Of a DNA stretch of 64,000 nucleotides, positions 7,592-21,581 are shown piece by piece. The first letter of the stretch is position 1, and each line of letters begins with the position of its first letter. The stretch lies in contig DAHUZB010000017.1 in the NCBI GenBank assembly GCA_027306785.1, forward strand, positions 1 to 64,000, read 5' to 3'. The notes under the pieces were generated by a model. The model did no database searches. It was not told the DNA's origin and saw only the letters and a list, made by a program, of their open reading frames with translations. The position numbers and the translations under genes were made by a program. The DNA is from Vulcanimicrobiota bacterium (GTDB lineage: Bacteria > Vulcanimicrobiota > Vulcanimicrobiia > Vulcanimicrobiales > Vulcanimicrobiaceae).

Positions 7592-9778
7592 GTGCGTCGA
7601 CGCGGCCGCTCGGTGTACGGGTTCCTGGTATCTATACTGCTATCCGTCGCGACATCGCGCGGCGCTCTTGCGGTGCAGCCTGCGTTCGCGCCGGTCGTGC
7701 TTTCGGCATCGCCCGCCTCGGTGCTCACGGGGCAGCCGGTTCTTTTTACGGTGTCGGGACTGCCCGCGGTAAACGGGCCGATCGTGCTCGTCTTCGGCGA
7801 CGGGGCCGCGCAGGTATTGAGCGGTCCGACGGTCGTGACGCACGTCTACGTGCAACCGGGTTTCTACAGCGCGCACGTGGATGTGTTCGGCAAACCCGCG
7901 GCGTTTGCAAACGTCCGCGTCGCGACCCCTGTGCCGCGCGTGCCGGCGGGAATCGTCTATTCCGCGACGCTTTCCGTGTCGCCGGTCGCGGCGGGCGCAC
8001 AGACCGAGGTCTTGCTGAACTACGGCTTGGACATCGAGCCGACGACGCTACCATCTCAAAATCTCGCGCTCGAGGCCGTCGTCGACCTTCGCGACGCACG
8101 GGGGACCTTGCTACGTCGCAGTGACGCCCTACCGGTGTATGCTTCTCCATTCGAGGGCCCGAGCGTCCGTTCTCTGCGGATTCCGTATTCCGTGCCGCTC
8201 GACGCGTCGGGAGCCTATTCATTGACGGTTGCGCTTCGCACCGTTGCAGGCGGACGAGTTCTGGTTACACCGCCGATACCGCTGCGTGTGCTTCCGGGGC
8301 CCGATCCCGCGCCCGCGCTCAAGAGCGCGGTTCGCGGGAGCGGAGCAATCGATATCGGCCCTGCCACGCCGTCGCGCGAATCGGTCAACGCCGCGATTAC
8401 GACCGAGTTACAATTCCGCTCGTCCGCGCTCGGTATCACGGGCACCACCGATCCTCTTTCGAGTCGCTCCGACGCCACCGTGTATCTGCGATCGGGAAAG
8501 CCGGGGCCGGTGCGAGCGCCGGACGCGCAGGGCGGCGGAGCGGCAAAGACGTCGACGGGTTGGCTCATCGCCGACGGCCGTACGATCGTGACATTGCCGC
8601 AGGTGCTCGGGGGCGGCGACGTGGTGCGGGGCCTCTTCGGCGAGTACGGCCGAGGTCACGTGCATGTGGATGCCGCAAGCGGATCGTCGGCGCTCGCGTT
8701 CGACGGCTTGCAGCGGCAGCATGCAAACGTGTTCGGCGTGTCATACGACGACGCGAAGACGAAAGCGGGCGCCCATGTCATCGCCGTTCGCGATGATACC
8801 TCCAGCGGCTTTTTCGGTGCTTCGGAACAATCGGTGACCACGGTGGCATCGCTCGAGCGGCATCTCTCGCAACGTTTGGACGTCAGCGGCGATATCGGCT
8901 TCGCCCACGTGAACGGCTTGACGTTCGGCGCGCCGTCGGGTTCCGACGCGGGCGACGATGTGGCCGTGAACTATGCGAACTCGCGAACGGTCGTCTCCGC
9001 GACGTATTCGAACGCCGGTGCGCTGTTCGGCGCCGTGGGCGGTCCCGGCGCCGCCGGAGATCAGGCGACGACCGCGATGAACGCGCAATTCGGTCTCGGT
9101 GCCCGCGGCACACTGATGATCGGCGCGACGCAAGCGACGACGCGTTCCGTGTATTCGCGCGTGACGAATGCGGACGTCGGATACGTGCTGGCGCTCCCGA
9201 ACGCACTCGCGTTCTCGTTGACGGCGACGCGTGTCGCGAGCAGTAGCGCCGGCGTCGATACGGACGCGGATACGGGGAGTCTAAGCGTATCGCGCGCATG
9301 GGAACATTCGTCCTTCGGACTCTCGGAGAGTCTGACCGCGATGCGCGATCGCCTCGGCGGGGCGCTGAACGCGGTCGTGCGGACGACGAGCCTCAATTGG
9401 ACGAAGCAACAGGGCCCGCGCCAACTCGCGCTCGGCCTCAACGCGATGAACAACGCACCGATGCCGACCGTCGGCGGCATGTCTCCCTTCGGAATCCCGT
9501 TACTCACGGGCCTTGCGAGCACCGGGGCGAGTGTCGTCTACGCTCTGCCGATCGGCCGGCCCGGAACCTTCGAGACCCAGGCGTATTTCTCGACGACGAA
9601 TACGAGCGGCGCGCTCAGACGCTCGATCGATCGCGATCTTGCGGTTACGCTCAGCCGGCATATCGGGCGGCATCTCGCGCTCGGATTGAAGTATGAAATA
9701 CTTTCGCATCGCGATACGGTGCCGGGTTACTCCACCGTTTCCCCCGGTCTTCGCATCCATCTCGAGGTGACGCAATGA
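7592..9778 (+). CDS. exported PKD-domain protein with beta-rich C-terminal half
   Basis: A protein of about 728 residues with an N-terminal signal peptide (GFLVSILLSVATSRGALA). A PKD-like beta-sandwich follows at about residues 30-115, with VLVFGDG and HVYVQPGFYSA. A second Ig-like region runs to about residue 240. From about 260 to the end the sequence is a long series of short alternating hydrophobic/polar strands rich in Gly, Thr, Ser and Tyr (for example VSATYSNAGALFG, RHLALGLKYEIL). This reads like an outer-membrane beta-barrel, though it ends in VTQ without a terminal aromatic residue. Function unknown. It overlaps the next gene by four bases and heads a three-gene operon of large exported proteins. 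Confidence 0.8.
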   Translation: MRRRGRSVYGFLVSILLSVATSRGALAVQPAFAPVVLSASPASVLTGQPVLFTVSGLPAVNGPIVLVFGDGAAQVLSGPTVVTHVYVQPGFYSAHVDVFGKPAAFANVRVATPVPRVPAGIVYSATLSVSPVAAGAQTEVLLNYGLDIEPTTLPSQNLALEAVVDLRDARGTLLRRSDALPVYASPFEGPSVRSLRIPYSVPLDASGAYSLTVALRTVAGGRVLVTPPIPLRVLPGPDPAPALKSAVRGSGAIDIGPATPSRESVNAAITTELQFRSSALGITGTTDPLSSRSDATVYLRSGKPGPVRAPDAQGGGAAKTSTGWLIADGRTIVTLPQVLGGGDVVRGLFGEYGRGHVHVDAASGSSALAFDGLQRQHANVFGVSYDDAKTKAGAHVIAVRDDTSSGFFGASEQSVTTVASLERHLSQRLDVSGDIGFAHVNGLTFGAPSGSDAGDDVAVNYANSRTVVSATYSNAGALFGAVGGPGAAGDQATTAMNAQFGLGARGTLMIGATQATTRSVYSRVTNADVGYVLALPNALAFSLTATRVASSSAGVDTDADTGSLSVSRAWEHSSFGLSESLTAMRDRLGGALNAVVRTTSLNWTKQQGPRQLALGLNAMNNAPMPTVGGMSPFGIPLLTGLASTGASVVYALPIGRPGTFETQAYFSTTNTSGALRRSIDRDLAVTLSRHIGRHLALGLKYEILSHRDTVPGYSTVSPGLRIHLEVTQ

Positions 9779-12700
9779 ATCTGCGTGATACCTTCGCGGC
9801 CGCCTGCTGTGCGATCGGCGCGCTGTTGCCGATACCAGCATTCGCGCTCGGAATCGCTCCGGGATCGATCGTCGCGGCGCCGTCGGTAACGACCGTCGGC
9901 GTGCCGGTGGTGTTTACCGTTACCGAACCGCGCGGCATGAACATGCTCCCCGGCGCAACGGTGGAGTTCGGGGACGGAACCGGCCAGCACATAACACCCG
10001 CCGGAGGGATGGCGACGGTCGTTCATGCATATGCGCGCCCGGGACGCTACGTTGCGACGGTCTCGTTCATGAGTTCGTTCGTCTATGAAGCAGTGGTGAC
10101 GGTAAACGGCCCGGTGACCCCCGCGCCCCCGAGCGACGGCCGAGGAGGCGCGCTCGATGCACGTTTGTCGTGGCCGGACGGCTCATCTTCGGTGCAGGCC
10201 ACCTCGCAAGCCGCCTTGCCGCGTCCTGTTGCTCGTGTGCTCGGCTACCGCGGCCCCGCGACCGTTACGTTTTATGTGGACGGAGCTCCCCGCGCGTCAA
10301 CGCCCGCCGTTCTCGCGGTTACGGGAACGACGATTCCGTTCATCGCGCCGCTCCCGAGCGGCGGCGGCCGCCATACGCTTTCGTACCGAGTCTCCTATCA
10401 AGGCGCGAGCGGTCTCTCGAGCGCACTCTCGCCGACGATCGACTACGCGCTCGATGCAAGCCCCGCACCCGTCGCCGCGACTTCTCTACCCGCGTACCTG
10501 CATTTTAACGGATTCGATGTAGCGGTCGTCCGCGGATCGCGCAACGCCGACGGCACATTCGATGCGACGGGAACGGTGGCGGTACTCGGCGCGCGTGAAA
10601 CCGTCGCATTTCGCGGACTTCGTCTCGCCGCGGCGACGCGAAGTACCGTGATCGTGCCGAACGCCGACGGAACCGGTACGCAGTCGAATGCGTCGATTTC
10701 GGGCGTGCTCGGCCTCCGCTCGCAGGATGACCTGACCGTGGATCGGGTGAACGCGGCATACACCGCGTGGCAAAACGCGGCGGTTCAATCAAACGCTCGC
10801 GCATCGATAAGTCTGGATAAAATCTACGGCGGCGCGGCGTACAGCACGTTTATCGATCGGGGCTACACGTTCGGAATCGCGGGCGTAGCGCTCGGGGCGG
10901 TCGGGACGCCGAGTTCGATCACGTTGCTATATCGCCCGAACACGGTCGGCGCGATGCCGCTTCCGTATACGGGCGGTTCGGGAGTCGTCTTCGCGGCGAC
11001 GGCGGGTACGCCGTTTTACGGGGAACCCACGGCGTGCACGGGCCTGACGCCCGCAAAGGGGCACGTCACGTCGATTCCTTCGGCGGTGCAGCACGGTTGC
11101 GTTTCGCCGCCCGATGCCGCGAACGGCGTCCTGCACGTGCCCATCACCCTCTCGCTCGCGGTTAGGAATATCGACGAATTCGGGCAAACGAACGCCGACG
11201 TTGCGTTTCCGGCGAACGCGAAATTCGGCGGGAGCGGAGATGTCAATTGGTTGACGTCATCGGCCCCCGGAGCCGCGATCGCGTTTTCGTTCGGGACGCC
11301 GCAAATCGATCCGCAGCCGTCGAGCGGTCGCGCGTCGGGCTCGCTCACCGCTCGTGGTGTCACCGTTGCAGTCGCACCCGAGAGCGTCACGCCGACCGCG
11401 GGCGCCGATTCGCTGAGCGCGCAGATCGACGAGCGATGGAACGCGGACGGAAGCGTCGATTTCGATCACGCGTTTGCGGGGAATCTTCCGTTTCCGATCG
11501 TAGCTCCGCAAAGTTTCAGTCTGGCGATTACGTCGATGAACGTGGCCGTGCACGAATCGTCGGCGCATGCGTCGGACGTGAGGGCCGGATTCTCCGCGGG
11601 TCTCGATAACGGTCGCACCGTTACCGGCTCGGTCGACGGCACGTTAGATGCGTGCGGTTCGTATACCGGCACGACGGCGAACGTAACCCCGATCGTCGAC
11701 GGGGGTGTGACGGTTGTCGCGCGCAGCGCACGGCTGAAGGTCGGTACGGCCGATTGGGAAGGCTGTAACTCGAATTCGTCGGCGGAGTCGTATTGGGTGA
11801 ACGATCCGTTCTGGCGACAGGCGACGCTGCCTCCGCACGGGGCGCCGACCGCCGTGCCGAAGCTCGACGATTGGGGTTTGAACGTCGACGCCGGAACCGT
11901 CTCTACGCCGACCCTGCCGAGCCCGGTATCGTTTCGTTCGCAGCGTTCCGGTTTCGGCTACGGCGGTGCGATCGTTACCTCGGCGGGCACGAGCGCGGCG
12001 ATGACCGCGGTGTTCTACCTGTCCGGCGATAACGCGCGTACGTCGATCGACGGTTTTCCATACGACCTTGCAAGCTTGGCGCTCTTCGAGCAAGGCGGCA
12101 CGGTGACGACGCAAACCGCGACGGGCACGCTCGTCATACCGCAGCCGGTCGGCGCCTCGATGACGGCATACGGTACCGGTACGAACGCCGACGGAGGCGT
12201 GGCGAGTCTGTTCGTGCCGAAGGCGACCCGGATCGCCCTCGCGGCATGGAAATCGGCACTCGTGCTCGATGATGACGCCTTCTCCACGCATCACACGCTC
12301 CCGATTCATGCGGCCGTGTCGATTCCGTTGTTGCCGTCGCTCGATGCTTCGGGCGCACTCCTTCCCGACGGCCACGTGCAAGGCGATGCGCTGACGGCAT
12401 CGCCCGGAAACGCGCCGGTCTCGCGCGCCGGTATCGATATCGACGTCGCGACACTGGTCTTCCCGTGGAGCGATTCGAACGCGGCGGACGGCCCTCCGGG
12501 CATCGTCGGTGCGCCCGCGGTCAACGGGTGGTCCGACAACGGAAAATCGGTTGAGATCGATTCCGATAACGGGATTCTTTCGCCGCCGACCGACTACAAG
12601 ATGGAGCTGCGCCAAGATATCGGAATCACCGACTTCGACGTCTTTTTGCAGTACACACCGAATACGAAGACATGGACCGGTCGCGGCCGCTCGAAGACGG

Positions 12701-13764
12701 CCGACGGCGTCTTGGATTTGCAACTCGCGTTGTTGCTCGATCGACATCGCGAACACGTCGAAATCGGCGGCAATATCGGAAAAATCACGAACGAACCGGG
12801 CTCCGGAAACGACGCGACCGACGGCGGAAGTCTATCGCTCGCCGAATTGCAAGGTGAAGCCGATTTCGATCGCGCCTCCGGCTCGTTGCAACATCTCGTT
12901 GTCGCGGGGGCGCTGACGGTCGATCCGCTCGATGCCGCCGTCGTCATGCTCTATCGAACCGATCCGACCGACGGATGGGTAAGCACGAACGTTAGCGCCG
13001 CTTCATCCGACGAGGCGCATGCGGTCGGGTTTCTGCAACAGCACTTCGAAAACTATTGCACGAGCGATTGGTGCTTTGCCGGAAATGTCAATGCCACGCT
13101 GAATCAGGATGCGGCATTGAGCGGCGAGGCGGGGTTCGGTCGCGCGACGAGTTCGGGCGGAGGTCCTTCCGGTTTCGCGTTTTACGTAGATGCCGCACTA
13201 CAGACGTCGCTGCGACCGAAGCCCTTTACGGGGATGGCCGCCGGTGACTTCGACCAGCATCCTACGGCATGGGATATGGAACTCGGGGTCGGTGGGATAC
13301 CGATCTTCGGCGTGTTGCAGGCGGGTGGAAACCTGTGCATTTGGGATCATCGTGAAACCAACTCGCTGTCCGCCGCGTCGTGCGACTTTGCCGATGCGAA
13401 CCAGGGCGTCGATCTGGTGCATCCGGTTCCGGAGCGCGGTATCGGCTTCGGGCTCGGGGTCGGCGTGAACGTCGCGATGCCGAACCAAGATCCGATCATC
13501 AGCGGTTCCGGCGCGCTCGCGCTCGCAGGGTCGACGGCCGGCTTCGAGGGGCAACTCGGAGTCGCCGCAAGCGCCCGTATTTTCAAAGTCGATATCGGAG
13601 ATGTCGGTGGATATTTCGACCTCAAATACCCGCCGTGGCGGTTCAACGGTAACGTGAAGGTCGACACCTGCGTGGCCGGTGTGAAACTCGGCGGAACATT
13701 CGATGTTGCCGCTCCGCCGACGAGCGTGGATCTTTCGGGCGTCAACGTCGGCGTGTGCTTGTGA
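9775..13764 (+). CDS. giant exported PKD-domain surface protein
   Basis: A 1329-residue precursor with a signal peptide ending near AFA (residue about 24) and a PKD domain at about 30-115 (ATVEFGDG, HAYARPGRYVATV). That domain is clearly related to the one in the preceding gene. The rest is beta-rich, low in charged helices, with scattered Cys pairs (EPTACTG, NYCTSDWCFAGN, GGNLCIWD, TASCDF-like positions, and GVCL at the end). No recognised catalytic motif was seen. The start is an ATGA overlap with the upstream gene. I infer a large extracellular or cell-surface protein; export genes specific to it are not in the window. Confidence 0.8.
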   Translation: MNLRDTFAAACCAIGALLPIPAFALGIAPGSIVAAPSVTTVGVPVVFTVTEPRGMNMLPGATVEFGDGTGQHITPAGGMATVVHAYARPGRYVATVSFMSSFVYEAVVTVNGPVTPAPPSDGRGGALDARLSWPDGSSSVQATSQAALPRPVARVLGYRGPATVTFYVDGAPRASTPAVLAVTGTTIPFIAPLPSGGGRHTLSYRVSYQGASGLSSALSPTIDYALDASPAPVAATSLPAYLHFNGFDVAVVRGSRNADGTFDATGTVAVLGARETVAFRGLRLAAATRSTVIVPNADGTGTQSNASISGVLGLRSQDDLTVDRVNAAYTAWQNAAVQSNARASISLDKIYGGAAYSTFIDRGYTFGIAGVALGAVGTPSSITLLYRPNTVGAMPLPYTGGSGVVFAATAGTPFYGEPTACTGLTPAKGHVTSIPSAVQHGCVSPPDAANGVLHVPITLSLAVRNIDEFGQTNADVAFPANAKFGGSGDVNWLTSSAPGAAIAFSFGTPQIDPQPSSGRASGSLTARGVTVAVAPESVTPTAGADSLSAQIDERWNADGSVDFDHAFAGNLPFPIVAPQSFSLAITSMNVAVHESSAHASDVRAGFSAGLDNGRTVTGSVDGTLDACGSYTGTTANVTPIVDGGVTVVARSARLKVGTADWEGCNSNSSAESYWVNDPFWRQATLPPHGAPTAVPKLDDWGLNVDAGTVSTPTLPSPVSFRSQRSGFGYGGAIVTSAGTSAAMTAVFYLSGDNARTSIDGFPYDLASLALFEQGGTVTTQTATGTLVIPQPVGASMTAYGTGTNADGGVASLFVPKATRIALAAWKSALVLDDDAFSTHHTLPIHAAVSIPLLPSLDASGALLPDGHVQGDALTASPGNAPVSRAGIDIDVATLVFPWSDSNAADGPPGIVGAPAVNGWSDNGKSVEIDSDNGILSPPTDYKMELRQDIGITDFDVFLQYTPNTKTWTGRGRSKTADGVLDLQLALLLDRHREHVEIGGNIGKITNEPGSGNDATDGGSLSLAELQGEADFDRASGSLQHLVVAGALTVDPLDAAVVMLYRTDPTDGWVSTNVSAASSDEAHAVGFLQQHFENYCTSDWCFAGNVNATLNQDAALSGEAGFGRATSSGGGPSGFAFYVDAALQTSLRPKPFTGMAAGDFDQHPTAWDMELGVGGIPIFGVLQAGGNLCIWDHRETNSLSAASCDFADANQGVDLVHPVPERGIGFGLGVGVNVAMPNQDPIISGSGALALAGSTAGFEGQLGVAASARIFKVDIGDVGGYFDLKYPPWRFNGNVKVDTCVAGVKLGGTFDVAAPPTSVDLSGVNVGVCL

Positions 13765-13775
13765 GCGAGGTTGGG

Positions 13776-15560
13776 ATGAGATACCTGCGCGCGTTGGCGC
13801 TGTCGCTATTCGCGATCTTTCCGACCTGCGGTATAGCGTCGGCCGGCGGCACCTTGCTCGTGGTTGCAGGAAACGCGCCGCACGGGGTTGCCGTACGCTG
13901 GTTCGGCACGGGTTTCAAAAACGGGGAGCGCGCGACGATTTCGCGGGTAACTCCGAGCGGCACCGCCGTTCTCGCGACGGTCACGCTGCATGCGGATGCG
14001 AGAACGGGGGCGTTGGGCGAGTTTTCTCCGCTCGCGGCGGCCGTAGCCGACGGAGATGCCTTGGTGGACACGGGCGTGACGCCGGGTGAGAACGTGCGGT
14101 ATCGGCTGCAGCCGGAGGGTGCGGGAGCGAGCATCAGCGGACCCGTGCGCGTCGGACCCGGCCGGATGTCCTCAACCTACAAGATACTCGGCGTTCGAGC
14201 GCTTGCGGTGGCGAACGGAATCCGCATCGCGATCGCGCAGCCCGAACGCGCCGCCGTCGTCGTGATCGAGCGTAAGGAAGGGGCACGCTATCGCATACTC
14301 GGTGCCACGATTCCGTTGCACTCCGGGAAACCCGCCTACTTTTCGGATACATCGGCGCCGATCGGCGTTACCTCACATTATCGCGTACATCTCGAGGATC
14401 TTTTCGGAAACAGCAGCCCGCGTAGCGTTGCTTTCGACGCGCTCGCTCGCGATTTGCGCCCGCCCGCGAGACCCTACTTGCAGGCGCGCGCCCCGGGAAA
14501 AAACGTGCTGCTTTCCTGGTCGCGTTCTACGAACGGTCCGCGCATCGCGGCGACGGAAGTGTATCGGCGCCCCTTTCGAGGGGCATTCGTTAAGATCGCG
14601 ACGCTCGGTAGTATGGCGACGAGCTATCGCGATGCAGCGCCGCCGGGGCCGTCGTTCGAGTATGCGGTGCGCTCGCGGTCGGTTAACGGCGTCGTGAGCG
14701 CAATTTCGAACGGCGTATTCGCGTTCGTAAAAAAAACAGCACCGCCGGATGCTCCCGCCGGATTGCTTGCCAAGGCGCTTCACGGTGCAATTGCGCTTCA
14801 CTGGGATGAAAGCCGCGATCCGACGACGTTCGAGTACCTGGTGTTTCGGCGCGACGGAACGGGCTCTCCCGTGCTTGTTGCGACGGTCGCGAAGGGAACG
14901 CACGCCTATCGGGATGTACTCCCGTCTGCATCGGTGACGAGCTATGCGTACGGCATCGGTGCGATGGATACGAGCGGAAATCGAGCGGCGCCCCTGCGCT
15001 GGGTTCGCGCTCGTGTCTTGCGCGCATCGCTGCCGGTGCCCGATCCGCCGCTCGACGGCCGCTATCTCGCGGGATCGGTCCGGCTGACACTGCTTCCTCT
15101 GCGCGATCCTGATATTCGTATGCTTACGATCGAGCGCGCCGACGACGGAGCGGGCTATCATCCCGTCGGGCGCATTCGAGCCGATGCGACCACGTTTCGC
15201 GATGGCGCGGTGGTGCTCGGTCATCGCTACGCCTATGCGGTGAAGAATGCGGGCGGTACGTCGCGCCCGCTCGTGGTGACGCTGAGTCTCGCCGCCTTCG
15301 TTCCAACCGCTCCGAGGGCCGCCTACATCGACGCGAACGATATCGTGGTCTCCATGCCTCGGCTGCCCGCGGGAACGCGCGTCGATATCGTTCGTAGGGT
15401 GGGTTCGATGTTCACCGTGGTCGCTCGCGGTTTCGTCGGGCTCCGATATCGCGATCGTGTCGTCGATGCGCGAGCGTACCGTATCCGATACGCGATCGTG
15501 GTGCTCGGGAGCTTCGATCGCAGCCGCCGCAGTGCGTTCTCGGCTCCGATGCGTCCGTAG
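13776..15560 (+). CDS. exported protein of tandem fibronectin III-like repeats
   Basis: A 594-residue precursor. The ATG at 13776 is preceded by GCGAGG with ideal spacing and opens a good signal peptide (RYLRALALSLFAIF, cleavage near ASAG); the in-frame TTG/GTG options further up lie inside the previous gene. About six beta-sandwich repeats follow; the clearest Fn3-like ones are near residues 230-330 (GKNVLLSWSRS, ATEVYRRPF, FEYAVRSRS) and 335-425 (GAIALHWDES, YLVFRRD, YAYGIGAMD). No enzyme motif is visible. It closes the operon with the two PKD proteins, suggesting that the three assemble or act together outside the cytoplasm. Confidence 0.82.
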   Translation: MRYLRALALSLFAIFPTCGIASAGGTLLVVAGNAPHGVAVRWFGTGFKNGERATISRVTPSGTAVLATVTLHADARTGALGEFSPLAAAVADGDALVDTGVTPGENVRYRLQPEGAGASISGPVRVGPGRMSSTYKILGVRALAVANGIRIAIAQPERAAVVVIERKEGARYRILGATIPLHSGKPAYFSDTSAPIGVTSHYRVHLEDLFGNSSPRSVAFDALARDLRPPARPYLQARAPGKNVLLSWSRSTNGPRIAATEVYRRPFRGAFVKIATLGSMATSYRDAAPPGPSFEYAVRSRSVNGVVSAISNGVFAFVKKTAPPDAPAGLLAKALHGAIALHWDESRDPTTFEYLVFRRDGTGSPVLVATVAKGTHAYRDVLPSASVTSYAYGIGAMDTSGNRAAPLRWVRARVLRASLPVPDPPLDGRYLAGSVRLTLLPLRDPDIRMLTIERADDGAGYHPVGRIRADATTFRDGAVVLGHRYAYAVKNAGGTSRPLVVTLSLAAFVPTAPRAAYIDANDIVVSMPRLPAGTRVDIVRRVGSMFTVVARGFVGLRYRDRVVDARAYRIRYAIVVLGSFDRSRRSAFSAPMRP

Positions 15561-15570
15561 GGATTGTGCG

Positions 15571-16284
15571 CTAGAGCTTGATCGTGGTGGTGCCTTCGCA
15601 GGGGATGCCCGCGCCGCAGACGGCGGGATCCCACGAGGCGTCGGCGAGCAGCGCGCGGATGCGCGCTTCGGTGGCGTCGTCGAGCGGCGGTTGGAAGCGC
15701 ACGCGTTCGGTGTGGCCGTGTTCGTCGACGGTGACGACGAGCGTAACGGTGACGCCGAGCTTTGCGAGGCTCTGCAAAACGGAGGGGTCGAGCACCGGGT
15801 CCGGCTGATCCACGCCGAGCGGCAGGTAGCCGCCCTGTCGGTCGGCATGGCGGGTGCTGGCCACCGTCGTCGTCTGCGCGGGGGCGCTTGCAATCGGCGC
15901 CGCGCTCACGCCCGTGGTCGCATCGGGCGCGCCCGCTCGCGGTGCCGCGACGACCGGCGCGACGCTCTGCGTGCGTAGGGGCTGCGCGGGCAGGACGTGC
16001 ACCGGTCGCGTTCCGAGACGGGCGGGCGCGGGCGTGGCGCGAGCGAGGTGCGGGAGCGGGGCGCGTTGCGGCGCGGCGGCGACGTGCACGCGCACGACCG
16101 GGCGTACCACCTCGCGCTGCACGCGGATGATGCGGGCGAACGAGATCGTTTCGACCGAGGGACCGTCGCCTTGCACGACGGCCAGTGCCGGGATGAGCGC
16201 GGCGATCGCAAGATGGATCGCGAGCGACGCCGGAAGCGCCACCCGCAGGAGCGGATCGTCGCGCCGAAGCGTACCGGTGCCCAT
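15571..16284 (-). CDS. TonB-like energy-transducer protein
   Basis: A 237-residue protein built like TonB: a short cytoplasmic N-terminus, one membrane helix (LLRVALPASLAIHLAIAALI), a long Pro/Ala/Arg-rich periplasmic linker (about residues 60-150), and a C-terminal domain of about 80 residues (VTVTLVVTVDEHGHTERV). The C-terminal domain holds a Cys pair (AVCGAGIPCEG), unusual for TonB and possibly a disulfide. The ATG at 16284 is preferred because an upstream extension is Arg-rich and has no hydrophobic start. It is convergent with the PKD/Fn3 operon. If the first operon gene is a barrel, this could be its energy partner, but that is inference. Confidence 0.7.
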   Translation of the reverse strand: MGTGTLRRDDPLLRVALPASLAIHLAIAALIPALAVVQGDGPSVETISFARIIRVQREVVRPVVRVHVAAAPQRAPLPHLARATPAPARLGTRPVHVLPAQPLRTQSVAPVVAAPRAGAPDATTGVSAAPIASAPAQTTTVASTRHADRQGGYLPLGVDQPDPVLDPSVLQSLAKLGVTVTLVVTVDEHGHTERVRFQPPLDDATEARIRALLADASWDPAVCGAGIPCEGTTTIKL

Positions 16285-16381
16285 GCGTACCTCTTCTAGC
16301 GGACTGCATTGGTCGAACGCGCCGGGGCGCCTGCTCGTGACGCTCTGCAACACCGCCGCCGCAGCGTGGGTTATGTGGCGC

Positions 16382-16633
16382 ATGATCGACACGAATATCG
16401 TTCTTTATCAAGCGGAGTGGTGCCCGTATTGCGCGCGCGTTCGCGCCAAGCTCACCGACCTGCTGCTCGACCACAAAGTAGTGAACGTGCCGCACGACCA
16501 CGCGCAGCGCACCGTCGTCAAGGAGCTCTTCGGCGTCACCGGCATCCCCTCGATGACCGACGGTGACGTGAAGATCGCCGATGACGACGATAAGATCATC
16601 GCCTATCTCGAAGAGAAGTACGGCAAACGATAA
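16382..16633 (+). CDS. glutaredoxin family protein
   Basis: An 83-residue thioredoxin-fold protein starting MIDTNIVLYQ. The redox motif CPYC is at residues 14-17, the cis-Pro is in VTGIPSM (about 52-58), and the C-terminal helix is IIAYLEEKYGKR. This is the classical dithiol glutaredoxin layout and length. An alternative ATG nine bases upstream (16373) is possible. It is divergent from the TonB-like gene, and a strong hairpin follows 16 bases after its stop. Confidence 0.85.
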   Translation: MIDTNIVLYQAEWCPYCARVRAKLTDLLLDHKVVNVPHDHAQRTVVKELFGVTGIPSMTDGDVKIADDDDKIIAYLEEKYGKR

Positions 16634-16649
16634 CGCGCGCCCCCGAGAG

Positions 16650-16693
16650 ATGCAACGAGGCCGTCGGCGGTAATGCCGACGGCCTCGTTGCAT
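16650..16693. terminator. perfect 19-bp hairpin between convergent genes, likely bidirectional terminator
   Basis: The arms 16650-16668 and 16675-16693 are perfectly complementary over 19 bp with a 6-base loop. It lies 16 bases after the glutaredoxin stop and 20 bases after the end of the convergent broken gene. T tracts are weak on both sides (TTTT at 16702-16705), so it may be only partly intrinsic. Confidence 0.75.
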
Positions 16694-16713
16694 GCGTGCG
16701 GCTTTTCCCGGCT

Positions 16714-17214
16714 TTACGGTGCCGGACTTTTTTGCGGATAGACGCCGTTCCAAGCGCCTGAGAAACGGGGAGTTAGAATGATGGATGCGTTCTTTGCCGT
16801 CCGTAGGTAGGACGTGATGCGAGCGATCACGGTACGCTCGGGGAGATGGGGTCCGCCGAGGAACGTGTAGGAGTTTCCATAGAGCTTGAACGCGGTTCCG
16901 TTGCGTGAGACGAACAGTTAGCGTGCCCCCGACTTCGAGCTAAGGACGTAGGCTTCGGGTTTACGTGGAGCCGAGCGCAACGCGACGATGTGGATATCGT
17001 ACATGAGCATGAGGCCGCCTGACGGGGGGAACATAGCCTGGCCGATTTTCGGGGATTGAGCGCCGCCGCGGTCTCGGCAATCCGCACCGTACGTTGCAGG
17101 CTGGAGGCGATGCTTTACCTCGGGAGCTGCCTCTGCCGGTAGCAAGAGGAGCGCCGTTGCACCAAGGATGGCAACGAGCATCGCGATGATCGATTTAGAT
17201 TCGAGAAGTTCCAT
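16714..17214 (-). pseudogene. module protein B, copy 1: exported small protein interrupted by in-frame TAA
   Basis: The ATG at 17214 starts a 98-codon frame with a membrane leader (SIIAMLVAILGATALLLLPAEA) that stops at TAA (16918-16920). The same frame continues without another stop for 67 codons to a TAA at 16714. The continuation is protein-like (LFVSRNGTAF, NSYTFLGGP). Around the stop, the reading GAR-stop-LFVSRNG...YTFLGGP lines up with KRLWFEDTMG...VTFLGP of the 125-residue gene at 18248-18625, placing the TAA at a Leu. This looks like a nonsense mutation of a once 166-residue gene; TAA is a normal stop elsewhere in the window. Function unknown. Confidence 0.6.
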
Positions 17215-17295
17215 CCAAAGCGCCCCCGGGAAAACAGGTTATGCTTGCGTGCCGCTCGCCATGCCGAGCGCGGACTCCGAGTGCTGGTTCGAAAG

Positions 17296-17706
17296 CTAGT
17301 AGCATGTGTAAAAGCTGAAGCCTTGACGGGCTGCCTCGACGATATCCGGGGTCTTCGTGATAGGAATCATCTGTCCGACCCCGGCGTCACGAGAAGTGTA
17401 CGCATCGAGGCCAAGCAGGTGAAGCGCTGCGCGCGTATCATCCGCTTTCGGGCGCGGACCGGAAACCGGGCCGTCGAAGTACCATGCTTTTCCGTCGCGG
17501 CGGATGACGATCCATCCGGGCGAGCGGCCATCGATCGCAAGCGCGATCGCGTGAGCGATATCCGTGCGTGGCGTTGCCGGGCTAATCGGTACGTTGCTCC
17601 CTCTCCAACGATCGATATACGCGCACAACGAAACGGGAGCCGGCGGCGTGGGACGGATGATCGGCTGAAATGCGAGATGCATCCACAGCGCAGCGAGCAT
17701 TATCAT
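17296..17706 (-). CDS. module protein A, copy 1: small exported Cys-pair protein
   Basis: A 136-residue protein starting MIMLAALWMHLAFQ, a short hydrophobic leader. The mature part has two Cys, near residue 28 (SLCAYID) and at the penultimate position (YTCY), which could pair. It aligns by eye with the 134-residue gene at 18810-19214: GWIVIRRDGKAWYF with GYTIAYVAFGSDGVRYL, then LLG, DAG/DAA, IPITK/VPLTK and a C-terminal F-x-x-x-C. No known family was recognised. It lies 81 bases upstream of broken copy B1. Its codon usage is less GC-biased than that of the flanking operons, so the island may be acquired. Confidence 0.6.
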   Translation of the reverse strand: MIMLAALWMHLAFQPIIRPTPPAPVSLCAYIDRWRGSNVPISPATPRTDIAHAIALAIDGRSPGWIVIRRDGKAWYFDGPVSGPRPKADDTRAALHLLGLDAYTSRDAGVGQMIPITKTPDIVEAARQGFSFYTCY

Positions 17707-17711
17707 AGCAG

Positions 17712-17960
17712 TCAGCTGTCCTTAAGCGACGAAAACGGCAGCGGAGATGATAGCTGAAGATCGATAGCGGACGCGGCTTTCCCGGTTGCTAACCCGGTCG
17801 CCTGTAGAAAATTGCGTTGATCGTCACGCACAAACATCGCCCAACACGTACGGTGGGCGATCCGGATCGGAACGAACGATTTTCGAGGCGGATATTGCTC
17901 TGTTCCGCAGCGCGGCGCCGCGCTGCTCACGGCAGAGGTGGTGTGATGAGTCACGAACAT
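17712..17960 (-). CDS. possible small ORF upstream of module A copy 1
   Basis: An 82-codon frame from ATG at 17960 whose TGA ends five bases before the ATG of the 136-residue gene. The spacing suggests an operon partner, and the third-position GC is moderately biased. There is no convincing ribosome binding site, signal peptide or family resemblance, and a longer open frame through the transposase remnant is clearly spurious. Low confidence. Confidence 0.22.
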   Translation of the reverse strand: MFVTHHTTSAVSSAAPRCGTEQYPPRKSFVPIRIAHRTCWAMFVRDDQRNFLQATGLATGKAASAIDLQLSSPLPFSSLKDS

Positions 17961-18120
17961 ATTCAGCCGATTCCCGCCTTTGCTTGACATCCGAGGTGTC
18001 GTACGATCGTGTCCCGGCCCGTGGTGTATGAGAGAGTCGCTCTCGTAGGATAGAGAGCGGCCATCGTGGCTTTCGGCGAAGGTTGTTTTTGCACAAATAG
18101 CCGACCGAAAGGGATCCACG
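17961..18120 (+). other. spacer with likely left end of an IS256-type remnant
   Basis: This stretch holds no supported gene. A TTGACA at 17984-17989 has no good -10 partner. A hairpin at 18039-18059 (CGCTCTC ... GAGAGCG) lies 61 bases upstream of the transposase remnant start, where an IS256-family terminal repeat would be expected; that identity is inference. Confidence 0.3.
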
Positions 18121-18246
18121 ATGGCCAAACTCCGTATCGTACTTTCCGAGCTGATCGAAAAGGGCGGCGACGTTGACTTCGTCCGCGAGATGTTGCAGTA
18201 CGCCGTGCGGCGGCTTGCCCTACGACGAGCGCAGCCCCCGTCGTAG
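18121..18246 (+). pseudogene. 5' remnant of an IS256-family (Mutator) transposase gene
   Basis: The ATG at 18121 opens a 41-codon frame whose first 33 residues match what I know of IS256-type transposase N-termini: a short lead, then LSELIEKGGDVDF and VREMLQYAVRRL. The conserved remainder (catalytic DDE region, several hundred residues) is absent; the frame hits TAG at 18244. It lies between two related sets of small exported proteins and points to past insertion and deletion here. No second IS end was recognised downstream. Confidence 0.55.
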
Positions 18247-18247
18247 G
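18219..18247. terminator. hairpin between transposase remnant and module B copy 2
   Basis: A 9-bp perfect stem (18219-18227 with 18239-18247, loop of 11) begins one base after the stop of the minus-strand 125-residue gene. It could end transcription of that operon, but no T tract follows. Confidence 0.35.
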
Positions 18248-18625
18248 CTACATCGGGAGATCGGTCCGGAAGCAACCGTCATATCGCATATCGGGCCCCA
18301 AGAACGTCACCGCGACATCGTTCGTGATGTGGATATAAAAGCCCATCGTGTCTTCGAACCACAAGCGCTTGTCTTCGGTGCGTACGATGTAGCCGCGTAT
18401 TCCGGGCGTTCCTTTGACCCGAACGACCCAGACGTTGACAACGCTCGCGGCTTTTCCGCTTCCGATCGTATTCGATGTTCCAAGCGCGGACTCCGAGCCG
18501 TGACACGTTGTGCCCGCTTTCGGAATCGACGCTCCCGCAGGAAGGCGATTCGCGAGCTCTCGCAAGAGATCGCTTGCATAACGCGGCGACGGCGCCGCCG
18601 CAACGACGTCGGGATGCGTAATCAT
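18248..18625 (-). CDS. module protein B, copy 2: small Cys-containing protein
   Basis: A 125-residue protein starting MITHPDVVAAAP, without an obvious signal peptide. The C-terminal half (VWVVRVKG, GYIVRTEDKRLWFEDTMG, VTFLGP) aligns with the broken gene at 16714-17214. It has Cys near residue 42 (TTCHG) and near the C-terminus (DGCFRTD). Its ATG overlaps the stop of the 63-residue gene (ATGA). It is last in a four-gene coupled operon. Fifteen bases inside it (18483-18497) recur at 17267-17281, between A1 and B1, a further hint of duplication. Function unknown. Confidence 0.6.
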   Translation of the reverse strand: MITHPDVVAAAPSPRYASDLLRELANRLPAGASIPKAGTTCHGSESALGTSNTIGSGKAASVVNVWVVRVKGTPGIRGYIVRTEDKRLWFEDTMGFYIHITNDVAVTFLGPDMRYDGCFRTDLPM

Positions 18626-18813
18626 GACTGCGTACCGTGTGGCTGCGGAAGCGGCCCGGTGAAGCAGTGGTGGATCACAGGACCGTATCCATTATGTGAT
18701 CCATTTTTGCGGGAGATCCCCTCCACAATCGCGCTCCACTCGGCGCTTGTCAATTGCGCGCTCCCGATATAGCTCGCGACGGCCGATCCGCCGACTTTTG
18801 GAACGATGCTCAT
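18622..18813 (-). CDS. 63-residue protein of the small exported module
   Basis: A tiny gene bounded by ATGA overlaps on both sides: its ATG (18813) overlaps the stop of the 134-residue gene and its TGA overlaps the ATG of the 125-residue gene. The sequence (MSIVPKVGGSAVASYIG..., with LTSAEWSAIVEGISR predicted helical, one Cys near residue 50) matches no family I know. No counterpart is visible in the first copy of the module. The precise coupling on both sides is the main evidence that it is real. Confidence 0.5.
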   Translation of the reverse strand: MSIVPKVGGSAVASYIGSAQLTSAEWSAIVEGISRKNGSHNGYGPVIHHCFTGPLPQPHGTQS

Positions 18814-19214
18814 CCCTTCGGCGGCGCTCCCGCACAGTAGAGCTCCTTGAAGTTCGGGCCGTCGAGTCGAGCGCGTTGCGACTTCGTAAGCGGAACCACC
18901 GATGCGGCATCTCCCGCGGAAAAGCGATGCTTCCCGAGCAGAAAGGCGAGCATGGACGTCATATCCGGTGCGAGTCGCCGATAAGGGGGAAACATCAGAT
19001 AGCGGACCCCATCGGATCCAAAGGCTACGTATGCAATCGTATACCCTTGATATGATGGATCGCTCGGTGTCACCCGATCTATGCGGAGCACGTGCGCGGG
19101 CGGGTTCGCTAGCCCGATAAATGCGCCGATGGATGCGGTGCCGCCCGGACAAACCGCGCCATTCTTCGTAAGAAGTTGCGTCGTGAGAGCGGCGAGGTAC
19201 ATCGTGGATATCAT
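18810..19214 (-). CDS. module protein A, copy 2: small exported Cys-pair protein
   Basis: A 134-residue protein. The ATG at 19214 is chosen because it overlaps the TGA of an upstream lipoprotein gene (ATGA); in-frame ATGs at 19250 and 19235 lie inside that gene. A short hydrophobic leader (MISTMYLAALTTQLL) is followed by Cys (AVCPGG), and a second Cys lies near the C-terminus (LYCAG), matching the pattern of the paralogue at 17296-17706. Shared blocks are Gly-Tyr/Trp-x-Ile, LLG, and PLTK/PITK. No known family was recognised; the pair of Cys suggests an oxidised extracytoplasmic protein. Confidence 0.62.
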   Translation of the reverse strand: MISTMYLAALTTQLLTKNGAVCPGGTASIGAFIGLANPPAHVLRIDRVTPSDPSYQGYTIAYVAFGSDGVRYLMFPPYRRLAPDMTSMLAFLLGKHRFSAGDAASVVPLTKSQRARLDGPNFKELYCAGAPPKG

Positions 19215-19357
19215 GATGAGAACGTTCCATTCCATGCCTGAGTGAAGCATCCGCGAGTGTACGGTAGCAACGGAAGCGATCCGCCTTTACAGCCCGCGAA
19301 TGCAAAAAGCGCTCCCAAAACAAGGATCGCAGAAAATACCGGTACCGGAAAGAACAC
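19211..19357 (-). CDS. 48-residue lipoprotein heading the small exported module
   Basis: A GTG at 19357 opens a 48-codon frame reading V-F-F-P-V-P-V-F then SAILVLGALFAFAGC: a lipoprotein signal peptide with lipobox FAGC at about residues 20-23. The mature peptide is only about 26 residues (KGGSLPLLPYTRG...). Its TGA overlaps the ATG of module protein A copy 2. It is short and starts with GTG, so it is easily missed. The upstream sequence GAAAG is a modest ribosome binding site. Small anchored lipoproteins of this kind can be entry-exclusion, lysis or immunity factors; nothing more specific can be said. Confidence 0.5.
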   Translation of the reverse strand: MFFPVPVFSAILVLGALFAFAGCKGGSLPLLPYTRGCFTQAWNGTFSS

Positions 19358-19514
19358 CTTTCAAAGCGTTTTGATTGCGTAGGTTAGTCGCGCCGCCTGT
19401 TGCGAAATGCGGCTTGACCTTTGCGAAACATCATCATGCGGGCTCGTAGGCATCGCGTCGATACGTGGAATGTGCATCTAGTCCGAACGTCCCGAAGGGC
19501 TCGGTCGACATGCA

Positions 19515-21581
19515 TTATCGCGCATGCGGCGCGATGCGGACCGGGATGCCGTTCAGGGCTGCGTTGCCGGTCGCTGCGTCGATGGCGTCGCCGGTCAGAT
19601 CGTTGATGCTCGCGCCGGGATGCTCCGTTGCGACGCGCATGCGCGTGCCCGGTTTCGTGTGGCCGAAGCCGTGCGGCAGGCTTACCACGCCGCGCATCAT
19701 CTCGTCGCTCACCTCGACCGGCACGGTGATGCGGCCGTAGTCGCTCTCCACGTGCACGGCTGCGCCGCTTTCGACGCCGAGGTCGGCGGCATCGTCGGGA
19801 TGCAGCAGCAGCGTGCAGCGATCGGCGCCGCGCATCAGGCGCGGTGCGTTGTGCATCCACGAGTTGTTGCTGCGCAGTTGGCGTCGCCCGATCGCGACGA
19901 ATCGCGGCGGCCGGTCATCGAGCGTCGCCCGCAGGCGCGGCAGATCGTCGAGAAAGCGGCGCGGAGCGAGGCGGATGCGGCCGTCGCCGGTGAGCAGGCG
20001 CTGCGGCATGCACGATTCGAGCGGACCGTAGTCCACGCCGTGCGGATGGGCGAGCAGTTCATCCACGCTCGTGCGACGAGGGCCGAAGCGCAGGCCCGCA
20101 TCCAGGCGTTCGCGCGGAGGCGCGAGCGCCTTGCCGGTGAGCCGCTGCGCGAGCGCATCGAAGATCTGCCAATCGAAACGCTGCTCGTCGGCTAGCTCGA
20201 AGACGGGCGCGTTCACGCGAGCGGTGTTGCGCACGGCGAAGTGATGGAAGATCACGTCGTAGTGCTCCACTTCGAGGCCGATCGCGGGCGGTAGAATCAG
20301 ATGCGCGTGGCGCGTGGTCTCGTTGAGATACGGATCGATGCAGAGCACGAAGTCCAGCTCCGCGAGCGCGCGGTCGAGCGCGGCGCCGTTCGGGGTGGAG
20401 AGCACGGGATTGCCCGCGATCGTCACGAGTGCGCGCACCTGTCCCGCGCCGGGCGTCGTGATCTCATCGAGCATCGTCACCACCGGAAGCTCGCCGTTGA
20501 ACTCGGGCAGTCCGCGTACGCGCGAGCGGTAACGCCCTTCGTGCACCTCGCCCGGCTTCGCGCGCAGCAGCAGATCGAAGGCGGGCAAGGGCCACATCGC
20601 GCCGCCCGGCTCATCGAGATTGCCGGTGATCGCGTTGAGCGCGACGACGAGCCATTGGCAGAGTCCGCCGAAGGCTTGCACCGAGAGACCCATGCGTCCG
20701 TAGGCAACCGCACGCGGCGCGCGGGCGAAGGCGCGCGCGATCTCGCGCGTCGTCTCCGGCGCGATGCCGGTGTGCGCGGCGACGCGCTCGGGCGCATACG
20801 CGGTCGCCGCGTCGCGCAGCGCGTCGAGGCCGTCGAGGAGCGGTGCGAGTCGTCCGAGATCGACCAGGCGCTCGTCGAAGATCGTCGCGATGAGCGCGAG
20901 CAATAGCAGCGCATCGGTGCCGGGACGGATGAAGTGGTGCTCGTCGGCGGCCTGCGCCGTCTCGGTGCGGCGCGGATCGATCGTCACCACGCGTCCGCCG
21001 CGCCGTTGCATCGTGCGCAGACGCTCGCGGATGCCGGGCGCGGTCATAATGCTGCCGTTCGAAACGAGCGGGTTCGCGCCCATCACCAAAAAGTAGTCGG
21101 TGCGGTCGAGATCGGGGATCGGCAGCAGCATCGGGTGCCCGAACATCTCGAGCGCCGCGACGTGATGCGGCAATTGATCCACGCTGGTCGCCGTGAAACG
21201 GTTGCGCGTGGAGAGCGCGCGCAGAAAGCCGCTCGAGCTGAGCATCGAGCCGCTGTTGTGTACGTTCGGATTGCCGAGATAGGTCGCGATCGCATCGCCG
21301 CCGTGCGCCGCTTCGATCGCACGCGAGCGTTCCGCGGCAAGATCGAACGCGTCGTCCCACCCGATCGGCTCGAAGCCCGATGCGGTGCGCACGAGCGGCG
21401 TGCGCAGGCGGTCGGCATCCTCGCGAAGATCGATCAGCGCGGTCGCTTTCGGGCAGATCGCCCCGTGCGAGAGCGGATCGTCGGGATCGCCGCGCAGATC
21501 GCGCACGCGCCCGTCCTCCACCTCGATCCGCAAGCCGCAGATCGCTTCACACAGATTGCACGCGCGGTAATGGGTGGTCAT
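19515..21581 (-). CDS. molybdopterin-dependent oxidoreductase with N-terminal 4Fe-4S domain
   Basis: A 688-residue member of the DMSO reductase/formate dehydrogenase superfamily. The N-terminus has the cluster motif C-x2-C-x3-C at residues 8-15 (ACNLCEAICG) with the fourth Cys at about 43 (GAICPKA). Further blocks are GSMLSSSGFL, MGANPLVSNG, GGRVVTIDPR, and a C-terminal molybdopterin-dinucleotide domain (HPDDAADLGVESGAAVHVES). There is no Tat signal, so it is probably cytoplasmic. Residue 184 or so in the usual Cys/Sec/Ser ligand zone is not obvious, so the substrate is unknown. It ends the tetrapyrrole operon; mobA upstream in the same operon makes the dinucleotide cofactor it would need. 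Confidence 0.88.
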   Translation of the reverse strand: MTTHYRACNLCEAICGLRIEVEDGRVRDLRGDPDDPLSHGAICPKATALIDLREDADRLRTPLVRTASGFEPIGWDDAFDLAAERSRAIEAAHGGDAIATYLGNPNVHNSGSMLSSSGFLRALSTRNRFTATSVDQLPHHVAALEMFGHPMLLPIPDLDRTDYFLVMGANPLVSNGSIMTAPGIRERLRTMQRRGGRVVTIDPRRTETAQAADEHHFIRPGTDALLLLALIATIFDERLVDLGRLAPLLDGLDALRDAATAYAPERVAAHTGIAPETTREIARAFARAPRAVAYGRMGLSVQAFGGLCQWLVVALNAITGNLDEPGGAMWPLPAFDLLLRAKPGEVHEGRYRSRVRGLPEFNGELPVVTMLDEITTPGAGQVRALVTIAGNPVLSTPNGAALDRALAELDFVLCIDPYLNETTRHAHLILPPAIGLEVEHYDVIFHHFAVRNTARVNAPVFELADEQRFDWQIFDALAQRLTGKALAPPRERLDAGLRFGPRRTSVDELLAHPHGVDYGPLESCMPQRLLTGDGRIRLAPRRFLDDLPRLRATLDDRPPRFVAIGRRQLRSNNSWMHNAPRLMRGADRCTLLLHPDDAADLGVESGAAVHVESDYGRITVPVEVSDEMMRGVVSLPHGFGHTKPGTRMRVATEHPGASINDLTGDAIDAATGNAALNGIPVRIAPHAR

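What the first reader, a model, noticed from the sequence alone, without database searches (positions are those of the whole stretch)
16714..19357. Duplicated module of small exported proteins with no recognised family
Two sets of tiny minus-strand genes share two protein types. Type A (17296-17706 and 18810-19214) shows matching blocks: Gly-aromatic-x-Ile, LLG, DAG/DAA, PITK/PLTK, an N-terminal Cys and a C-terminal Cys. Type B (16714-17214 and 18248-18625) shares an A/G-Y-I/V core, a Leu-rich R-x-W/L-F block, and VTFLGP/YTFLGGP. In both sets A precedes B. The second set adds a 48-residue lipoprotein and a 63-residue protein. A paired, duplicated, exported two-Cys system with a mini-lipoprotein is the best candidate here for an undescribed system (for example effector-immunity or exclusion). 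The alignments are by eye.
Basis: partly seen in the sequence, partly recalled or inferred. Interest (0 to 1): 0.75.

Follow-up and report, generated by a model that had tools for sequence, protein, structure and literature searches.

The report
Orphan partners of polymorphic bacterial lipoproteins
The tiny genes are leftovers and stand-alone partners of a fast-changing lipoprotein system that looks like bacterial weapon-and-antidote pairs; its protein family is not in the databases searched and is nearly confined to one poorly known bacterial family.

Summary
Pairwise, A1-A2 is not significant (E 0.16) and B1-B2 does not align beyond 8 residues. B1 carries an in-frame TAA. Profile searches instead put A1, A2 and B2 in one two-cysteine superfamily with no Pfam, NCBIfam, PHROGs, PADLOC or PDB match. 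It is almost confined to one family of Vulcanimicrobiota (Eremiobacterota). In relatives its usual setting is a two-gene module: a lipoprotein with a Cys/Gly-rich stalk and a variable C-terminal domain, overlapped or closely followed by a small, usually exported protein of matching type (14 modules, Mantel r=0.86, p=1e-4). Stalk copies in one genus carry other C-terminal domains instead, one like the M91 'effector' metallopeptidase, each followed by an unrelated small gene. That is the architecture of polymorphic toxin-immunity systems. In the window no intact lipoprotein is left: there are stand-alone small genes (A1, A2, B2), a pseudogene (B1), two lipoprotein remnants and an IS256 fragment. 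All lie in a 2.9-kb low-GC interval absent from one sister species and holding a single B2-like gene in another. Best reading: an orphan-immunity array. Toxicity and immunity are inferred, not shown.

The parts
16373..16633 (+). Left flank: glutaredoxin gene; adjacent to the molybdopterin oxidoreductase gene in sister species G002
   Evidence: Pfam PF00462 8.8e-11; synteny
16650..16693 (.). Perfect 19-bp inverted repeat (6-nt loop), probable bidirectional terminator at the left end of the interval
   Evidence: not called by the terminator scan, which needs a T-run
16714..17214 (-). B1: pseudogene of a small exported partner protein; in-frame TAA at 16918-16920 and the C-terminal Cys replaced
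   Evidence: intact 173-aa homologue in G001 (L170 4221-4742), 1e-29 across both sides of the stop, directly 3' of a lipoprotein
17254..17281 (-). Possible remnant of a second B2-like gene (reads SESALG, as in B2)
   Evidence: repeat D3, 94% over 18 nt; by shuffling only 8/300, so weak
17296..17706 (-). A1: intact small two-Cys protein (Cys28, Cys135); partner lipoprotein missing here
   Evidence: 59% identical homologue in G002, 48% in G093; in both it follows a lipoprotein-type gene with a two-Cys C-terminal domain
18005..18246 (+). Fragment of an IS256/Mutator-family element (left end plus first transposase codons, ATG at 18121)
   Evidence: 92% and 88% copies in the same genome; the open copy matches PF00872 at 5.5e-36
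18248..18625 (-). B2: intact two-Cys protein without a clear signal peptide in this genome
   Evidence: homologues in G002, G008, G001, G004; same superfamily as A1
18622..18813 (-). 63-aa ORF: remnant related to the C-terminal tail (..CF..PL) of a lipoprotein, kept directly upstream of B2
   Evidence: broken homologue directly upstream of the B2 homologue in G008 (E 1.1e-4; z 16, 0/2000 shuffles); ATGA overlaps with A2 and B2
18810..19214 (-). A2: divergent member of the two-Cys superfamily (ORF can extend to 19250; ATG at 19214 gives a 4-nt overlap with lip)
   Evidence: 16.0 bits, 0/1000 shuffles; no homologue in 60 relatives
19211..19357 (-). lip: 48-aa ORF with a lipobox N-terminus (FAGC) and a C-terminal tail GCFTQAWNGTF; likely internal-deletion remnant of a module lipoprotein
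   Evidence: tail matches the G001 partner protein's tail, 0/2000 shuffles; 57/2000 against the G001 lipoprotein
19515..21581 (-). Right flank: molybdopterin oxidoreductase
   Evidence: PF00384 5.9e-33; 78% identical in G002 with the glutaredoxin gene 15 bp away

Best explanation
The interval is a string of orphan partner genes and decayed remnants of a polymorphic lipoprotein system. Shown by comparison: in relatives the unit is a lipoprotein (lipobox, Cys/Gly-rich stalk, variable C-terminal domain) overlapped or closely followed by a small gene whose type matches that domain; stalk copies in one genus also carry an M91-like metallopeptidase domain or other domains, with a different small gene behind each; the window's interval has lost the lipoproteins and is a site of gain and loss. 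Inferred: the lipoprotein is displayed at the cell surface and its C-terminal domain damages or inhibits contacted related cells; the small protein, exported or periplasmic, binds the matching domain and protects the producer; A1, A2 and B2 are kept as stand-alone immunity against neighbours that still carry the lipoprotein, while B1, the 63-aa ORF and lip are decaying leftovers of replaced modules.
For: 14 lipoprotein-small modules, 13 of them with a gap of -116 to +12 nt (start codon uncertain in one), and matched types (Mantel r=0.856, p=1e-4; in the 13-module set r=0.81 over pairs of different genera). Constant N-terminus with different C-terminal domains in G087, G081 and G084, one M91-like (PF14891, 8.9e-4, with HELDH). 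Lipobox in the readable N-termini. Presence/absence at the same site: none in G002, one B2-like gene in G001, array in G000. Low GC of the interval and an IS256 fragment. No lipoprotein-length hit of the family in G000. B1 and the 63-aa ORF have relatives still linked to lipoprotein or partner genes. Strings of old immunity genes and polyimmunity loci are a described feature of such systems (PMC3482391).
Against: No toxic or protective activity is known for any member. In the two-Cys modules the lipoprotein domain and the small protein are homologous, which is not usual for toxin and immunity. Type matching could reflect only linked inheritance. The M91 match is below Pfam's gathering score. 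A conserved high-GC relative next to hsp20-lon in many genera shows that the domain also has a non-polymorphic role. B2 lacks a signal peptide here. No delivery system was identified; a VipB (type VI sheath) search was negative.
Confidence: 0.5

Rival explanations
1. Surface recognition or adhesion system without toxicity: the lipoprotein shows a variable two-Cys domain and the small exported homologue is its soluble partner (self recognition, assembly or masking).
For: Lipoprotein domain and partner share one fold family, unlike most toxin-immunity pairs; matched types; no enzyme-like motif noted in the two-Cys domain.
Against: Copies with the same lipoprotein N-terminus carry an M91-like peptidase domain and other unrelated domains, each with an unrelated small gene behind it, which fits effectors better.
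Confidence: 0.25
2. Lineage-specific secreted orphan genes that duplicate and decay, with no pairwise function: a genomic-turnover island at a permissive intergenic site.
For: Low GC, pseudogene, IS fragment, presence/absence among sister species; many solitary members.
Against: The lipoprotein-small adjacency recurs in about 8 genera with overlapping genes and matched types; two invariant Cys across 25 divergent sequences.
Confidence: 0.15
3. Envelope-stress or redox-related exported proteins derived from the conserved relative next to hsp20-lon; modules are local expansions of that function.
For: Conserved single gene in the order [two-Cys]-hsp20-lon in many genera; two conserved Cys; the window interval lies between a glutaredoxin and a molybdenum enzyme.
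Against: The window's neighbours are only the insertion site (adjacent in G002); family members elsewhere lie in unrelated contexts.
Confidence: 0.08

Closest known systems
Polymorphic toxin systems and polyimmunity loci (Zhang et al. 2012, PMC3482391)
   Same: Constant N-terminal part, interchangeable C-terminal domains, small gene directly 3' and matched in type, strings of leftover partner genes that differ between close relatives
   Different: Toxicity untested; the main C-terminal domain is an undescribed two-Cys family and the putative immunity protein is homologous to it; carrier is a short lipoprotein rather than a long secreted protein
SitBAI lipoprotein toxins of myxobacteria (PMC5562445, PMC8546572)
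   Same: Lipoprotein carrier with variable C-terminal domain and a downstream partner gene, on variable DNA
   Different: Another phylum; no upstream sitB-like gene seen in the modules examined; SitA domains are mostly nucleases; homology to SitA and presence of TraAB not tested
Peptidase_M91 'Effector protein' domain (PF14891)
   Same: One lipoprotein copy (L105) has a C-terminal HELDH stretch matching PF14891 at 8.9e-4
   Different: Below the gathering score; not present in the window

Membership tests
Polymorphic toxin system | One N-terminal carrier region joined to different C-terminal domains | tested here: met
   at least four different C-terminal domains on related lipoprotein N-termini in one genus (relatives, not the window)
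Polymorphic toxin system | Partner gene directly 3' of the carrier and matched to its C-terminal domain | tested here: met
   (14 modules; Mantel p=1e-4); linked inheritance is not excluded
Polymorphic toxin system | C-terminal domains of known toxin superfamilies | tested here: inconclusive
   M91-like domain, sub-threshold; two-Cys domain matches nothing
Polymorphic toxin system | Toxicity relieved by the partner protein | not testable with these tools
   needs expression experiments
Polymorphic toxin system | Intact carrier gene at the locus described | tested here: not met
   The window holds only remnants (lip, 63-aa ORF); no lipoprotein-length hit of the family in G000. The locus is filed as an orphan array, not a complete system
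Polyimmunity locus | Tandem same-strand partner genes with short spacing, differing between close relatives | tested here: met
   spacing is short for lip-A2-63aa-B2, but B2 to A1 is 541 nt with an IS256 fragment
Polyimmunity locus | Not interrupted by toxin genes | tested here: inconclusive
   Only remnants of carrier genes lie between
SitBAI | Homology to the SitA N-terminus and delivery by TraA/TraB | not tested
   No SitA or TraA sequence was used; SitA homologues were reported only from Myxococcales (PMC5562445)

The most novel reading that the evidence does not exclude
A polymorphic lipoprotein weapon system of Vulcanimicrobiota in which the toxic domain and its antidote are co-diversifying members of the same two-cysteine fold family, recruited from a conserved exported protein encoded beside hsp20-lon, so that immunity works by homotypic pairing.
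Probability: 0.3. Interest if true: 0.75.

Novelty: new variant of a known kind. Interest (0 to 1): 0.55.

Why it matters
If the reading holds, a barely studied phylum (Vulcanimicrobiota/Eremiobacterota, one cultured species in the paper read) has its own polymorphic lipoprotein antagonism or recognition system built on a protein family missing from the libraries searched, with domain and partner of the same fold family. It would give a first handle on contact competition there and a testable case of immunity by homologous pairing.

Tried and rejected
(1) A duplicated A-B pair: no significant direct A-A or B-B alignment; A1 and B2 turned out to be homologous to each other. (2) ORFs are chance: rejected for A1, B2 and B1, which have homologues at 1e-47, 1e-24 and 1e-29. 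(3) Phage or plasmid origin: no viral-contig relative, no PHROGs match, no plasmid match for one module lipoprotein; lineage-restricted instead (23 of 99 family genomes and 1 of about 50 other genomes of the phylum at 1e-6). (4) Known defence system: PADLOC negative. (5) Fold recognition: AlphaFold of A1 is moderate (pLDDT 68, pTM 0.57), of B2 poor (54, 0.44); Foldseek against PDB found nothing (best E 0.29). (6) PDB profile hits to antibody chains (E 0.07 and worse) taken as chance. (7) B1 as a two-Cys member: scores -0.4 bits; it is related only through its G001 module, whose lipoprotein scores 16.5 bits. (8) Type VI delivery: no VipB in this genome. (9) A cysteine-peptidase reading of the L152 C-terminal domain is by eye only; Pfam and NCBIfam found nothing there.

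Full report
Setting. The window is contig C26 of a 3.14-Mb genome; the window is 66.6% GC. One genome of the same family, G010, is a single contig of 3,508,363 bp, exactly the chromosome size published for Vulcanimicrobium alpinus WC8-2 (PMC9758169). So the window most likely comes from the family of Vulcanimicrobium, phylum Vulcanimicrobiota (Eremiobacterota/WPS-2); this is an inference from genome size. G010 itself had no two-Cys hit at 1e-3.

Checking the observation. The ORFs exist. A1-A2 aligns at E 0.16 and B1-B2 only over 8 residues at E 6-10 in direct comparison. B1 as given contains an in-frame TAA at 16918-16920. Three consecutive gene junctions (lip-A2, A2-63aa, 63aa-B2) are 4-nt ATGA overlaps, read directly from the sequence, so these ORFs look like one transcription unit.

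The site. In same-genus G002 the glutaredoxin and molybdopterin-oxidoreductase genes that bracket the interval end 15 bp apart. In same-genus G001 exactly one B2-like gene lies between them (L055 6098-6439). The interval (about 16640-19515) is 53-66% GC against 66.6% for the window. It contains a fragment of an IS256/Mutator element (18005-18246; copies of 92% and 88% elsewhere in the genome; PF00872 5.5e-36). This is a variable site.

A new superfamily. A1 has homologues in the family (59% in G002, 48% in G093, others to 1e-6) and so does B2. Iterated profiles started from A1 reach B2 (first at E 1.4e-4), and those started from B2 reach A1 (first at E 1.6e-4). In 25 aligned members only the two cysteines are invariant (A1 Cys28 and Cys135), with a G-[WYF]-x-Y..(D/N)G..(W/Y) hairpin-like core. 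Against a model built without window sequences, A1 scores 57.5, B2 46.6 and A2 16.0 bits, each above 1000 of 1000 shuffles; B1, the 63-aa ORF and lip do not. No Pfam, NCBIfam, PHROGs, PADLOC or PDB family matches. The family is almost confined to this bacterial family: 23 of 99 genomes, and one of about 50 others in the phylum at 1e-6.

The module in relatives. Most informative is the setting of the homologues. A longer protein with a lipobox, a Cys/Gly/Pro-rich stalk and a C-terminal two-Cys domain is followed by a small single-domain gene, usually with a signal-like N-terminus. In 14 such modules the gap runs from -116 to +12 nt in 13; in one the start is uncertain. The type of the lipoprotein domain predicts the type of the small protein: Mantel r=0.856, p=1e-4 for 14 modules, and r=0.81 over pairs from different genera in the 13-module set. 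Co-inheritance of linked genes alone would also give this, so it shows stable pairing, not binding. Nine of the 14 carry a recognisable lipobox by pattern or eye; in the other five the N-terminus is cut by a contig end, frameshifted or of unclear start.

Swapped C-terminal domains. In genus g25 the same lipoprotein N-terminus carries other C-terminal domains. L105 ends in a HELDH-containing domain matching Peptidase_M91 'Effector protein' at 8.9e-4, below the gathering score, followed by a 174-aa protein with a hydrophobic N-terminus. L152 ends in a domain that by eye resembles a cysteine amidase, overlapped by an exported 176-aa protein with a weak match to NF033672 (1.2e-5). L153 has yet another domain and follower. 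Constant carrier, swapped tips and matched 3' genes are what defines polymorphic toxin systems (PMC3482391). Lipoprotein carriers with this layout are known in myxobacterial SitA (PMC5562445).

Reading the window in that light. A1's closest relatives follow lipoprotein-type genes in G002 and G093, but upstream of A1 here there is only unrelated sequence and the IS256 fragment. B1 is a broken copy of a 173-aa protein that in G001 overlaps a lipoprotein gene by 20 nt; the match (1e-29) runs through both sides of the stop, and the C-terminal Cys is lost. The 63-aa ORF has a broken homologue directly upstream of the B2 homologue in G008 (z=16, 0/2000 shuffles), so it looks like the tail of B2's former lipoprotein partner. 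The lip ORF joins a lipobox to a tail (GCFTQAWNGTF) that matches the G001 partner's tail (0/2000 shuffles), which fits an internally deleted gene. No lipoprotein-length member was found in this genome. So the interval is a string of partner genes and remnants without a live carrier, much like the leftover immunity strings and polyimmunity loci described for polymorphic toxins.

How it most likely works. Inferred: intact modules in relatives put a lipoprotein at the surface whose tip harms neighbours lacking the matching small protein; the orphan genes here give protection against such neighbours, or are fading. Toxicity, binding and delivery are untested; VipB is absent. What weakens the toxin reading is that tip and partner are homologous in the two-Cys modules, and that a conserved high-GC relative sits beside hsp20-lon in many genera. 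A non-toxic recognition system remains a serious rival.

Structure. AlphaFold of A1 gave b-b-b-a-b-a-b at pLDDT 68, of B2 a similar strand order at pLDDT 54; Foldseek against PDB gave no match. The fold remains open.

Noticed in passing
L102 4346-4864, L103, L120, L123-L127, L129-L132, L134, L135: A conserved, high-GC two-Cys relative lies next to hsp20 and lon in many genera; probably a vertically inherited housekeeping member of the family.
   Followed up: partly
L105 5007-6263: The same lipoprotein N-terminus as the two-Cys modules ends in an M91-like metallopeptidase domain, followed by an unrelated 174-aa protein with a hydrophobic N-terminus.
   Followed up: partly
L152 2499-4059 and L153 2424-4022: Two further C-terminal domains on related lipoproteins with unknown following genes; by eye the L152 domain resembles a cysteine amidase.
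   Followed up: partly
window 9775-15560: Two large adjacent plus-strand genes (1329 and 601 aa, signal-like N-termini; weak PKD match in the first) next to a proline-rich minus-strand gene (15571-16392) that I took for TonB-like; conserved in G002 at 60-70% identity.
   Followed up: no
G000:C22 end and C25 end (L116, L117): IS256-family copies end exactly at contig ends, so this element probably breaks the assembly.
   Followed up: no
L034 5271-6170: The G093 module gene appears to be an NAD-epimerase-like N-terminus joined to the stalk and two-Cys domain; possible gene fusion or recombination scar.
   Followed up: no
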